A DNA stretch of 64,000 nt from Fischerella sp. CENA71. Its GTDB lineage: Bacteria; Cyanobacteriota; Cyanobacteriia; Cyanobacteriales; Nostocaceae. The notes beneath the pieces were generated by a model. It saw only the letters and a list, made by a program, of their open reading frames with translations, was not told where the DNA came from and ran no database searches. Shown one piece after another: positions 17,526-45,317 of this stretch (position 1 is the stretch's first letter; every line of letters begins with the position of its first letter). A program made the translations under genes and the position numbers. The stretch is from contig JANBVI010000055.1 of assembly GCA_024239075.1 (NCBI GenBank), positions 1 to 64,000 on the forward strand, read 5' to 3'.

Positions 17526-18527
17526 ATGAACATCATTACTTATAGTCCGGCTTACACGATTGTTCCTACTTATGAATGTTATAATCGCTGTACCTATTGC
17601 AACTTCCGTACCGATCCCGGTCAAAGTTCTTGGTTGACAATAATAGCAGCAGAAAAGATTTTCAAACAACTTAAAAACCAAAATATCTGTGAAATTCTCA
17701 TCCTTAGTGGCGAAGTTCATCCCCAATCATCACGGCGTTTAGAATGGTTTCAGCGCATTTATGATTTGTGTGAATTAGCATTAACAATGGGTTTTTTGCC
17801 ACATACAAATGCTGGTCCATTGAGTTTTGTGGAAATGCAAAAACTCAAGCAGGTAAATGTTTCAATGGGGTTGATGTTAGAACAGTTAACCCCAGATTTA
17901 TTAAAAACTGTACACAAATATGCACCGAGTAAATTACCAGATTTAAGACTGCAACAATTAGAATGGGCTGGAGAATTAAAAATCCCATTTACAACAGGTT
18001 TATTGTTGGGAATTGGAGAAACAGAAAATGATTGGTGGGAAACTTTGAAAGCGATCGCCAACTTGCATCACCGCTATCATCACATCCAAGAAGTGATTCT
18101 GCAACCACATAGTCCTGGTAATCAGCAAAGCTTTAATGCACCACCATTTAATCCCAATCAGCTACCAGAATTAATTTTCAAAGCACGTCAAATTTTACCC
18201 TCAGATATTACTATTCAAATTCCACCAAATTTAGTTAAAGATCAGCAATGGTTACTCGCATGTATAGCAGCTGGCGCGAGAGATTTAGGTGGAATTGGCC
18301 CCAAAGATGAAGTTAATCCTGATTATGCTCATATTCAAGAGCAAGAATTAAGAGAAATTTTACAACCTGCGGGATGGGAATTAGTGCCAAGGTTGCCAAT
18401 TTATCCACAATTTGATCATTGGTTGTCGGAGGAATTGCAAACACTAGTAAAGCTGTGGCGAAAACTTCACCACCAACTAAAATACATCACCCTGAATACT
18501 GAGGCTAAAATGGGTGATTTGAGGTAA
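17526..18527 (+). CDS. cofG: FO synthase subunit CofG (radical SAM)
   Basis: 333 residues. The radical-SAM cluster motif is CX3CX2C (Cys18, Cys22, Cys25 in ECYNRCTYC). It is followed by family segments HTNAGPL, MGLMLEQL, FTTGLLLGIGET and GGIGPKDEVNP, all typical of 7,8-didemethyl-8-hydroxy-5-deazariboflavin synthase subunit 1. With CofH it joins tyrosine and a flavin precursor into the 5-deazaflavin FO. In cyanobacteria FO is best known as the antenna chromophore of class I-type DNA photolyases rather than as part of a full F420 economy. cofH is not in the window, so the two subunits are encoded apart. No strong ribosome-binding site is visible. Confidence 0.93.
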   Translation: MNIITYSPAYTIVPTYECYNRCTYCNFRTDPGQSSWLTIIAAEKIFKQLKNQNICEILILSGEVHPQSSRRLEWFQRIYDLCELALTMGFLPHTNAGPLSFVEMQKLKQVNVSMGLMLEQLTPDLLKTVHKYAPSKLPDLRLQQLEWAGELKIPFTTGLLLGIGETENDWWETLKAIANLHHRYHHIQEVILQPHSPGNQQSFNAPPFNPNQLPELIFKARQILPSDITIQIPPNLVKDQQWLLACIAAGARDLGGIGPKDEVNPDYAHIQEQELREILQPAGWELVPRLPIYPQFDHWLSEELQTLVKLWRKLHHQLKYITLNTEAKMGDLR

Positions 18528-18592
18528 ACAGTCTATTTTATTACCATACTTTAGAGTGTAAATCTACTAGATTTAATAGGTACCACAGCCCG

Positions 18593-18706
18593 CAATATTT
18601 CTCGGTTAAGGATTTTTCGTCATAATTTGGGCCATGTAGAGACGCGCCATGGCGGGTCTCTGGTGGGTTTAAATGTCAATCGATTTGTCTTATCCGAGCA
18701 GTATTG
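18593..18706 (+). mobile_element. 114-bp MITE, copy A, with 10-bp target duplication
   Basis: A non-coding element with imperfect terminal inverted repeats: left end CAATATTTCTCGGTTAAG, right end (complement) CAATACTGCTCGGATAAG, 15 of 18 identical. A near-perfect central palindrome lies around GACGCGCCATGGCG. It is flanked by perfect 10-bp direct repeats CCACAGCCCG at 18583-18592 and 18707-18716, the signature of a transposition event. A second copy at 40044-40157 in the opposite orientation differs at one base in 114. There is no coding capacity, so it must be mobilised in trans by a transposase recognising CAATA ends. Confidence 0.9.
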
Positions 18707-18784
18707 CCACAGCCCGAACTAATCGTAAAGTATAATTAACACTTATTACCAATTACCCATTACTAGTAAACGCAAACCACCATC

Positions 18785-18876: not shown

Positions 18877-21354
18877 CTATTCTGATACACCACCAACTAC
18901 AGGTTTCACTTCCGAAAATGGATTAGTACCACCAGTCCAGTTAAAGTCGCTAATGCGTAAGGTAATGCCACCTAATTGTAGTTCTGGATTGTAACGCAGG
19001 GTAATACCATAAGTACGACGACTGTATTGTAAGAAATAGTCAGTACTAGTGTTTTCTCCTGTATCTAAATTAACCGATGCTTGAACACCAATAGTTAATG
19101 GGCCATAAATCTGCTGTGTAATCCCCGCACTCAAGGTTCTAGTATCAACAGCACGGTCAAATAAGAAGGGAGACTCACCACTATCAAGACCTTGGGAGTA
19201 ACTAATATTAAAATTAGTATAGTCAAAAAATGATCTGGAAAAATGACCAATTTGTCCTTCTAAACCAATTGTGCCAATTAATGTGCTTTGGTCATCTCCA
19301 TTCGTGTAATAACTAGTAGTACCAGTCAAGCCTCCAAATGCTCGTAGGTAGGGTACTACTGGGTTAGGGGTGTATCGTAATCCCTCAGTAGCAGTGGCTG
19401 GTAAGGGTTTACCTTGCCATAATAATAATCCTCCATTGAGGGCGGCGCTAGCTTGGAGACGACCAAGGGAGATACGGTTATTATCTCGGATTGGTTCGAG
19501 CAAATCTTCGCGATCAGTGTTGGCAGTGATATACTGAGCGCCTGCTTGGTAGCTGAGGTTCAATCCGGTTTTACCAAGAGGGATGATTGGGGAAGTGATG
19601 ACACCGCCAAAGGTACTTTGAACAGTTTGATAACCAAGGCTACCATTGTAGAGGCGATCGCGATAACTATATTCTAATGTCACATTATGGGGGTAGCGAA
19701 TATCACCAATTTGTTGCCGCAACCGTAAACTTGCCTTAAGGTTATTTTCAACATCGCTCAAGTCAAAACTAGTTAATGTCCCAGAACCCTCAACTGTTGT
19801 TCGTGGACTCAAAGTGCCATCAAGTGATGTTTTTAAACCAAACAGCGAGGGAACGTTACTAAAACCGTCCTCCACAGTCTTTTGAACGAAAAACTGAGGT
19901 GTCAGACTAAAGCGAAAATTCTCGGAATTTATGGGTTCCAATCTGCGCTCTATAAATACACCACCACGCTGATCCCCATCAAAACCAAAAGCAACTAACC
20001 CAGGTGTAGCGTCTCGTTCTCTGCGATCAATCACCTGCTCATTTTTCGGAATGGGTACGCTGACACGGCGGTCAAATACTACACGTTGATTCCGAGTACG
20101 AACACGGTCTTGCAAAGGTGACTCTCGTTTCAATGTCACTTTATCAGCACGTAATTGCAATTCTGGTGGCGAAAAAGGATCATTAGTTATGGTAACATCT
20201 GATGCTTGCCAGCCGCGGGGATAAAAATCAATCCGTGCAGCTTCAAAACGGACTCGCCGTACTTGTCCTCCCTGTTCGGGTTTGGGTATATTCCTTGCAT
20301 TTGTTCTACTACCAAAGCCAAAGTTAATTCCCCCTGGACTACTTACCCCAGTCAATGGTTGACTGCTTCTGATGCGATCGCTCGGTGGGCGTGCTGGAAC
20401 TCCACCTGCTGTGACATCGGTAGGCAAAAAAGCAAAATCTTGATTGGCTGTGGGTAGAAAAATCTCACCACGACCGGCGATCATTTCTCCATTATCCTGA
20501 ACAAAATTATAGGTAAATCGCTGCCCACGTATTACTTGATCGCCTCTGGTTAAGGCAACATTTCCTTCACCCACAGCAATTAAATTGTCTAAACTAACTT
20601 GAATGCGATCAGCATCCACCACCGCGCCATCAAAGCGGACAACAACATTACCGACTGCTGTGACTACCCGTCTTTGTTCGTCATACTCCTGGTTATCTGC
20701 GATTACTTCTATAACTCTCCTTGTTTCTGGTGTCGTTGGTGCTGGTGCTGGTTGTGGATTTTGGCTGATGAGGTTGCGAGTTTTAAATTCTATAGTTGCT
20801 GTTTGGTTGGTGCTTGGTTGTTGGTTAGCAAGATTAAATTTGATTTTGATGGGCTGTGTTGCTGAGTGGGAAGTCTGGGAATTTTGAGCAGTGTGATGAT
20901 TTTGTTTTGATTGGACTAGTTGTTGAGCCAATAACTGTGATTTTTGTGGAGATTGGTTCTTATTATTGTGGATTTTCTGGACAATTTGCTGTTTGGTTTG
21001 TTTTGGTTGACTAATATTGTTAGTGTCTTGGGAAACCTGTGGCTGTTGTTGTGAGTAACCAATAGATAAGGGTTCCCCTAAGAGTTCTGCATTTGTTTGA
21101 GCGATATTTAGAGGCGAAAATTCTGCTGGAAAAGTTTCCGGTGTAGAGATTGTGGGTGGAATTTGAGCTACAGATGATTCATCAGGTGTAAGCTGATGTC
21201 GCAGGTTAACTGGTTTTCGCTGGAAATTTTCTGCATTCACCTGTTGTTTTGTGGAATGCAATTGGCGATCGCTTGCAGCTATGGCTGGCAGATTTTCTGC
21301 TAGTAATGGTTCAACAATAGCAGGTGGTTCGGGTGGCAGAACGGAATGAAACAT
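18877..21354 (-). CDS. DUF3769 / LptD-like outer-membrane protein
   Basis: 825 residues. The first ~230 are low-complexity, Gln/Asn/Pro/Thr-rich. Residues ~235-330 form an OstA/LptA-like jellyroll (VIEVIADNQEYDEQ, AVGNVVVRFDGAVVDADRI, TRGDQVIRGQRFTYN). The remaining ~450 residues have the alternating pattern of outer-membrane beta strands (ARIDFYPRGW, LEYSYRDRLYNGSLGY, LQYSRRTYGITLRYNPEL). This layout matches the cyanobacterial DUF3769 group, regarded as LptD-like, so a role in lipopolysaccharide or other lipid export to the outer leaflet is likely. The start MFHSVLPPEPPAIVEP agrees with the family; no classical signal peptide is obvious. Confidence 0.85.
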   Translation of the reverse strand: MFHSVLPPEPPAIVEPLLAENLPAIAASDRQLHSTKQQVNAENFQRKPVNLRHQLTPDESSVAQIPPTISTPETFPAEFSPLNIAQTNAELLGEPLSIGYSQQQPQVSQDTNNISQPKQTKQQIVQKIHNNKNQSPQKSQLLAQQLVQSKQNHHTAQNSQTSHSATQPIKIKFNLANQQPSTNQTATIEFKTRNLISQNPQPAPAPTTPETRRVIEVIADNQEYDEQRRVVTAVGNVVVRFDGAVVDADRIQVSLDNLIAVGEGNVALTRGDQVIRGQRFTYNFVQDNGEMIAGRGEIFLPTANQDFAFLPTDVTAGGVPARPPSDRIRSSQPLTGVSSPGGINFGFGSRTNARNIPKPEQGGQVRRVRFEAARIDFYPRGWQASDVTITNDPFSPPELQLRADKVTLKRESPLQDRVRTRNQRVVFDRRVSVPIPKNEQVIDRRERDATPGLVAFGFDGDQRGGVFIERRLEPINSENFRFSLTPQFFVQKTVEDGFSNVPSLFGLKTSLDGTLSPRTTVEGSGTLTSFDLSDVENNLKASLRLRQQIGDIRYPHNVTLEYSYRDRLYNGSLGYQTVQSTFGGVITSPIIPLGKTGLNLSYQAGAQYITANTDREDLLEPIRDNNRISLGRLQASAALNGGLLLWQGKPLPATATEGLRYTPNPVVPYLRAFGGLTGTTSYYTNGDDQSTLIGTIGLEGQIGHFSRSFFDYTNFNISYSQGLDSGESPFLFDRAVDTRTLSAGITQQIYGPLTIGVQASVNLDTGENTSTDYFLQYSRRTYGITLRYNPELQLGGITLRISDFNWTGGTNPFSEVKPVVGGVSE

Positions 21355-40030: not shown

Positions 40031-40043
40031 GGGTAGTGCGTCT

Positions 40044-40157
40044 CAATACTGCTCGGATAAGACAAATCGATTGACATTTAAACCCACCAGAGACGCGCCA
40101 TGGCGCGTCTCTACATGGCCCAAATTATGACGAAAAATCCTTAACCGAGAAATATTG
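40044..40157 (-). mobile_element. 114-bp MITE, copy B, with 10-bp target duplication
   Basis: Reverse-complement copy of the element at 18593-18706, identical at 113 of 114 positions. The central 22-bp palindrome around GCGCCATGGCGC is perfect here; copy A has one G in place of C. Flanked by perfect 10-bp direct repeats TAGTGCGTCT at 40034-40043 and 40158-40167. The target sequences of the two copies differ, so each copy reflects a separate insertion. Confidence 0.92.
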
Positions 40158-40234
40158 TAGTGCGTCTAACGCTGTGTACCCCTTCGGGGAAGCAAGCTAT
40201 AACATGACACTAAAAGACACTTTTCAAACATCCT

Positions 40235-40435: not shown

Positions 40436-40709
40436 ATCGTAAGATTTTTCTATTTTTGCATATTTATTACTTTTGATTTTCAATAAAAAACTGTATAGTT
40501 TATAGAAACAAACACTTTTATTTCTCAAATTTAGAAATTTTTTATGAACGCATAATCGAGAGTTAAAACAGGAAAATTTTTACCAATTATTCGTCTTCAC
40601 ATAGCAATACTAAATAAATTCTAAAAATTGAGATAGTCATATCCTTGACTTATTTAATAAGTCGGGAATCTTCTTGTTTAAGAATAATTTAGGTATGCTA
40701 TCTAAAAAT

Positions 40710-40806
40710 TAGAGACGCGCCAATAGCGCTGTAGCGAATGACTTCGCTAAGGTGCGTCTCTACAATCCCAAAATTATCACGAAAAATCCTTAACAGAGCA
40801 GTGTTG
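40710..40806 (-). repeat. Degenerate MITE-related fragment
   Basis: On the minus strand it begins CAACACTGCTCTGTTAAGGA, then TTTTTCGTGATAATTTTG and TGTAGAGACGC, clearly related to one half of the 114-bp MITE. The central palindrome is enlarged by about 28 bp (GCGCTGTAGCGAATGACTTC). The other terminal repeat is not recognisable and no target duplication is visible. Confidence 0.7.
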
Positions 40807-45085: not shown

Positions 45086-45317
45086 TTATTATACCAAAAT
45101 ACCTGTAAAAACGCCTAAATTGACGATTCCTCGACCACCCCACTCTCTAATCAACTTGACGGTTGATTATGATACAGCTGGCGAATCAGGGGTGATACCC
45201 CTCATCAACGATTTTTCGTCATTCCACCAGATGTAGAGACGTAGAATTGCTACCTCACCGTCCAGCGTGATGCACCCCTCCCTACTTTGTTGAGAGAGGG
45301 GAATTCCGCCGATTTTG
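45086..45317. other. Spacer after maf with small hairpins
   Basis: It contains hairpins AATCAAC/GTTGATT (45149-45168) and GGGGTGATACCCC (45189-45201), a GATTTTTCGTC...TGTAGAGACG patch related to the MITE left end (45210-45240), and a CCCCTCC/GAGAGGGG stem (~45276-45301) like the repeat at 8148. No gene seen. Confidence 0.5.

What the first reader, a model, noticed from the sequence alone, without database searches (positions are those of the whole stretch)
18583..18716. Recently moved 114-bp MITE with a perfect 10-bp target duplication (copy A)
Seen directly: the element 18593-18706 is bounded by CCACAGCCCG on both sides, has imperfect terminal inverted repeats (CAATATTTCTCGGTTAAG vs CAATACTGCTCGGATAAG) and a central near-palindrome, and is 113/114 identical to copy B. 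Known: short non-coding elements with TIRs and target duplications are MITEs moved by a transposase in trans. Inference: such high identity between two copies with different targets implies recent, possibly current, activity. The parent transposase is not in the window. Nezha is one cyanobacterial MITE family described earlier; whether this is the same or new I cannot tell.
Basis: partly seen in the sequence, partly recalled or inferred. Interest (0 to 1): 0.72.

Follow-up and report, generated by a model that had tools for sequence, protein, structure and literature searches.

The report
Mobile mini-element of IS4 type
A 114-base non-coding DNA element has jumped to about 26 places in this cyanobacterium's genome, most likely by borrowing the moving enzyme of a common bacterial jumping gene, and its relatives suggest that the ends and the middle of such elements are shuffled independently.

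Summary
A 114-bp element at 18593-18706 lies between perfect copies of CCACAGCCCG and differs by one base from copy B (40044-40157). It is a MITE. The genome holds 26 copies at least 95% identical: 18 have a perfect 10-bp duplication, 7 have one mismatch, 1 has none. At three other copies, relatives carry the uninterrupted site with a single 10-mer (seven orthologous sites), and two nested insertions agree. Copy A's own site could not be compared. The tips belong to the same set as those of complete IS4-family elements in related genomes, which also make 10-bp duplications. In this assembly I found only broken IS4 transposases of that group, so current mobility is not shown. Beyond the finding: the family occurs in all five genomes of the genus examined, with tip classes that match IS4 transposase clades, while the interiors cross those classes. 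One 145-bp composite with one tip of each class sits in a perfect 10-bp duplication. The element is a new member of a known kind; the mosaic of tips and interiors is the interesting part. Kinship with Nezha could not be tested.

The parts
18583..18592 (+). target duplication CCACAGCCCG, left copy
18593..18706 (+). MITE copy A (114 bp, type A tips)
18593..18610 (+). left tip CAATATTTCTCGGTTAAG; exact sequence found only in this genome among 146 of the family
18638..18661 (+). central palindrome AGAGACGCGCC/ATGGCGGGTCTCT (copy A carries one private mismatch, element position 63)
18689..18706 (-). right tip CAATACTGCTCGGATAAG (TGC class)
18707..18716 (+). target duplication CCACAGCCCG, right copy
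40034..40043 (+). target duplication TAGTGCGTCT of copy B, left copy
40044..40157 (-). MITE copy B, identical to the type A consensus
40158..40167 (+). target duplication TAGTGCGTCT of copy B, right copy
40709..40806 (-). degenerate relative of the element (tip CAACACTGCTCTGTTAAG, extra palindrome in the loop)

Best explanation
Copy A is a non-autonomous miniature transposable element (MITE) moved in trans by a transposase of the IS4 family. The transposase recognises the about 18-bp tips, frees the element and joins it to a staggered cut whose repair leaves a 10-bp target duplication. Shown here: multiple copies, tips, duplications, empty sites, nested insertions, and autonomous IS4 elements whose tips and duplications fit. 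Inferred: the biochemical steps (from what is known of the IS4 family, recalled) and which IS4 element served as the source of transposase for type A; the tips point to the TGC/TTC class, of which this genome shows no intact gene. The interior is a long imperfect hairpin without a coding role that I could see and is not a shortened IS4 element as far as the ends compared show.
For: 26 copies at 95% or more; duplications: 18 of 26 perfect, 7 of 26 one mismatch, 1 of 26 none. In five genomes, 86 of 113 full elements have a duplication with 0-1 mismatch. Empty sites: of 12 copies queried by joined flanks (11 whole, 1 in part), 3 gave inspected matches through the junction: one in 4 of 4 relatives, one in 2, one in 1. 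Nested insertions at C20:13368-13605 of this genome and at G001:C113. Complete IS4 elements with fitting tips and 10-bp duplications: G008 1501 bp, G014 1541 bp, G008 1513 bp; G021 2194 bp, 3 of 5 fetched copies with a duplication, and G017 2175 bp. Transposases match NF033592, PF13006 and PF01609.
Against: Searches of the own genome found no intact transposase of the group: C26 has a 273-aa piece, C62 an N-terminal piece running into an IS630 gene. Similarity between MITE and the IS ends compared stops at the tips, so direct descent from a known IS is not shown. The left tip was found in no other of 146 family genomes. Copy A's own site gave no empty-site test. 27 of 113 elements have no duplication at 0-1 mismatch. 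2 of 5 G021 IS copies fetched showed no duplication.
Confidence: 0.93

Rival explanations
1. Type A was moved not by a lost TGC-class transposase but by a GGT-class one acting across classes, the class whose remnants lie in this genome.
For: A 145-bp composite with a TGC left tip and a GGT right tip sits in a perfect 10-bp duplication (AAACGCCTCC) at G001:C110, so at least one transposase pairs the two kinds of tip. This genome's remnants C26 and C62 both carry GGT tips.
Against: Tips are concordant in 108 of 113 elements, and in the IS elements the tip class follows the transposase clade, which suggests selectivity. Both remnants are broken. One composite is one event.
Confidence: 0.3
2. The copies are non-mobile repeats spread by recombination, or REP-like palindromes, and the flanking 10-mers are older duplicates.
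For: The central palindrome resembles dispersed palindromes of cyanobacteria (recalled); GTAGAGACG also occurs at 40755 and 45233 of the window, there within degenerate relatives of the element.
Against: Seven empty orthologous sites with a single 10-mer, two nested insertions, a different 10-mer at each copy.
Confidence: 0.02
3. The element has been kept as a regulatory or terminator hairpin, and its spread is secondary.
For: Copy B folds as RNA to -49.9 kcal/mol, z -7.85. Copy A lies between two converging open frames (17526-18527 + and 18877-21354 -).
Against: Copy A carries a private change inside the stem. Insertions lie in varied settings; at least one seems to cut a longer frame (L006). 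No expression data.
Confidence: 0.1

Closest known systems
IS4-family insertion sequences of related cyanobacteria (unnamed elements in genomes G008, G014, G017, G021, G002)
   Same: CAATA...TAAG tips of 18 bp, 10-bp duplications
   Different: 1.5-2.2 kb with a transposase gene; interior unrelated to the MITE in the ends compared
Bacterial MITEs in general, e.g. those reviewed in PMC10969869 (passages seen)
   Same: short, non-coding, tips of an IS, target duplication, many copies
   Different: several tip classes on one interior lineage, and a composite with mixed tips
Nezha, a cyanobacterial MITE (named in passages of PMC10969869 and PMC3733652; original paper not held)
   Same: MITE in filamentous cyanobacteria
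   Different: not testable here: tips, length and parent of Nezha were not seen. The strict 39-base pattern of this family hit only Westiellopsis, Fischerella and Pelatocladus records
Small dispersed repeats of cyanobacteria (Elhai et al. 2008; paper not held)
   Same: short palindrome like the centre of this element (recalled)
   Different: those are recalled as far shorter, without the IS4 tips; not compared here

Membership tests
MITE | short, no transposase gene | tested here: met
   114 bp; no long frame set by the element in 26 copies beyond those of the neighbourhood
MITE | terminal inverted repeats | tested here: met
   15 of 18 positions
MITE | target duplication of fixed length | tested here: met
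   10 bp in 25 of 26 copies with 0-1 mismatch
MITE | duplication made by insertion | tested here: met
   empty sites for three other copies and nested insertions; copy A's own site inconclusive
MITE | tips shared with an autonomous element | tested here: met
   type B tip equals the G008 IS tip but for one base at one end; type A right tip CAATACTGCTCGGATAAG differs by one base from the G021 IS tip CAATACTGCTCGGTTAAG; type A left tip differs by two
MITE | moved in trans by that transposase | not testable with these tools
   needs a mobility assay
IS4 family (as source of the transposase) | IS4-type DDE transposase | tested here: met
   NF033592 over its cut-off for the G021 and G002 proteins and the C26 piece, PF13006 and PF01609; the C62 piece reaches PF13006 but not the NF033592 cut-off
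IS4 family (as source of the transposase) | target duplication of about 9-13 bp (recalled) | tested here: met
   10 bp for the complete elements with a detected duplication
Nezha | sequence and parent as in its description | not testable with these tools
   paper not held, ISfinder not available
REP/RAYT palindromes | single palindromes tagged GTAG/CGTC tied to a tyrosine transposase | not tested
   no search for a RAYT was run; the 10-bp duplications and the IS4 tips speak for another kind

The most novel reading that the evidence does not exclude
In this genus a MITE lineage has repeatedly changed the transposase it depends on: both tips (about 18 bp) are exchanged between IS4 recognition classes while the interior stays, through nested insertions, mixed-tip transposition and gene conversion, so that tips and interior evolve as separate modules.
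Probability: 0.35. Interest if true: 0.62.

Novelty: new member of a known kind. Interest (0 to 1): 0.42.

Why it matters
It ties a MITE family of the Fischerella/Westiellopsis group to a defined set of IS4 elements, with dated-by-comparison empty sites. If the mosaic reading is right, it shows how a non-autonomous element can outlive the loss of its first transposase by changing a few bases at its tips, and gives natural tip variants with which to measure end recognition by IS4 transposases.

Tried and rejected
Empty site for copy A: the right flank is found in four relatives at 92-96% identity, but only the part from about 18877 on; the left flank is not there, so the test is open for copy A itself.

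Parent in the own genome: single tips were followed at C10, C20, C30, C56, C32, C78, C3, C9, C26 and C43. C26 is an IS4 piece; C30:179442 looks like the end of an IS4 remnant (compare G001:C53); C20 and C56 look like decayed MITEs; in the rest no IS4 transposase frame was seen.

MITE as a plain internal deletion of an IS: the ends of nine complete elements and some pieces were printed beside the MITE; by eye no likeness went beyond the tip. No alignment score was computed.

Exact left tip elsewhere: 1 of 146 family genomes, this one.

Literature: searches of the open library for Nezha, small dispersed repeats, IS4 with MITE, Fischerella with MITE, cross-mobilisation, and the palindrome letters gave no description of this family in the listings seen; one search found 0 papers. 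Only passages of PMC10969869 and PMC3733652 were read. Wolk 2010, Elhai 2008 and the Nezha paper are not held.

One search used a wrong frame for the G018 transposase and gave a false long branch; one search repeats the tree with the right stretch.

Full report
Observation. The element, its tips and its duplications are as described. Copy A and copy B differ at one of 114 positions, element position 63, where copy A alone departs from the consensus of the 25 copies of 114 bp.

Copies in the genome. The window is C55:1-64000 of a 7.47-Mb assembly of 95 contigs. The search listed 26 copies at 95-100% identity over the full or nearly full length, one 72-bp piece at 99%, and 14 copies at 85-88%. 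Further rows of that list are the central palindrome matching itself on the other strand. Of the 26, 18 have a perfect 10-bp duplication, 7 have one mismatch and one (L022) has none. The copies of 114 bp differ from the consensus at 40 of 2850 positions, 1.4%; 13 of the 40 are in the 36 tip positions and 27 in the 78 interior ones. The family is thus young but not from a single very recent burst.

Two types. The second type shares the interior but has the tip CAATACGGTTCGG at both ends (type B). Type A has CAATATTTCTCGG on the left and CAATACTGCTCGG on the right.

Insertion shown. At C20:13368-13605 a type A element sits in the right end of a type B element: taking it out with one copy of its duplication (CGTATTGCC plus one mismatch) restores the type B end and type B's own duplication CCTGACTTCT. 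In G001:C113 a type A relative lies inside a type B relative with the duplication AGATCGATTT, a stretch that is single in other type B copies. Across species, the joined flanks of 12 copies (one in part) were searched in the genus. Three gave inspected matches through the junction: copy L011 in all four relatives, L008 in two, L010 in one; all seven aligned sites carry one 10-mer, in some with one or two base changes. A further weak match for L005 (69%) was not inspected, and the other eight gave no match through the junction in the rows listed. Copy A's own site could not be tested.

Source of the transposase. C26 holds a 273-aa frame and C62 a 171-aa N-terminal frame of IS4-type transposases, both next to the tip CAATACGGTTCGGTTAAG; the C62 piece runs into an IS630-type gene near the contig start. 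Searches with the C26 protein and with the G021 protein found nothing better in this genome. Complete elements exist elsewhere: G008 1501 bp with the type B tip at both ends and a perfect duplication; G014 and G008 1541 and 1513 bp with GGTTCAG tips; G021 with 11 frames of 468 aa and no stop, of which five were fetched, all 2194 bp with CAATACTGCTCGGTTAAG at both ends, three with a perfect duplication and two without one found; G017 2175 bp with the same class, with duplications. Within the genus, G002:C115 has a partial TGC-class element, 78% identical to the G021 protein over 316 residues and cut by the contig end. In a tree of ten transposases the TGC/TGTTCGG proteins stand apart from the GGT/TTT ones with full support; GGTTCAG is one clade; the two GGTTCGG proteins are not resolved as one.

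Relatives. All five genomes of the genus held match, and 20 of 146 genomes of the family, in 7 of 56 genera, at E up to 1e-12. Contig lengths identify G003, G004 and G001 as the Westiellopsis prolifica IICB1, Fischerella sp. PCC 9431 and Pelatocladus maniniholoensis records (inference).

Mosaic. From 122 loci of five genomes I took 113 full elements; 11 loci gave none under the pattern used. Tips: 63 GGT at both ends, 45 of the TGC/TTC kind at both ends, 3 mixed, 2 other. On a tree of the 78-column interior (108 rows; the 5 mixed or other rows left out) the tip class changes at least 7 times, 5 of them forced by well-supported branches, against 28 in shuffles; a single origin of the TGC/TTC kind is rejected (p 2.3e-5). 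With all 113 rows, the left tip changes 9 times, the right 10, and the joint label with its mixed states 13, so the two tips do not change in perfect step. Cautions: few columns, a bootstrap that had not settled, the classes were looked at before the test, and gene conversion breaks the tree model. Copy L026 looks like such a conversion: type A tips with an interior partly like its type B neighbour 3 bp away. The closest pair across classes differs at 4 interior positions but in the class bases at both tips.

A composite. In G001:C110 a 145-bp unit made of a type A relative plus the last 30 bp of a type B one lies between perfect copies of AAACGCCTCC; the same unit, with one difference, is the nested arrangement at G001:C113. 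The simplest reading is that the nested insertion made a unit with one tip of each class, which then moved.

Other properties. Copy B folds into one long hairpin (RNA -49.9 kcal/mol, z -7.85); copy A as DNA -16.9, z -4.2. The target sites show only weak preference, at most 0.30 bits at a position over 86 sites.

Verdict. An ordinary kind of element, well supported, with an unusual record of exchange between tips and interior.

Noticed in passing
window 40709-40806: A decayed relative of the element, on the strand of copy B, with an extra palindrome in its loop, about 550 bp from copy B.
   Followed up: partly
window 45205-45241: A scrap resembling the left arm of the element (AACGATTTTTCGTCAT...GTAGAGACG).
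   Followed up: no
L082:1024-1164: A type B copy of 141 bp with a 27-bp insert at the centre of its palindrome and a 10-bp duplication with one mismatch.
   Followed up: no
L075:1943-1974 (G000:C30:179442): A lone tip CAATACTTCTCGGTTAAG followed by letters like the 3' end of an IS4 remnant in G001:C53; closer to the type A left tip than the TGC tip is.
   Followed up: partly
L008:1615-1645: Copy C74:80843 sits directly before a CCCCGACTTTTT...AAAAAGTCGGGG hairpin that the relatives keep without the insertion.
   Followed up: no
L080:1100-2240: The IS4 piece on C26 is flanked by a diverged inverted repeat of neighbouring sequence, as if rearranged.
   Followed up: no
loci of G001-G004: The central palindrome comes in several sequences (GCGATATATCGC, GTTGCACTGCAAC, GCGCCATGGCGC) on otherwise similar arms.
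   Followed up: partly
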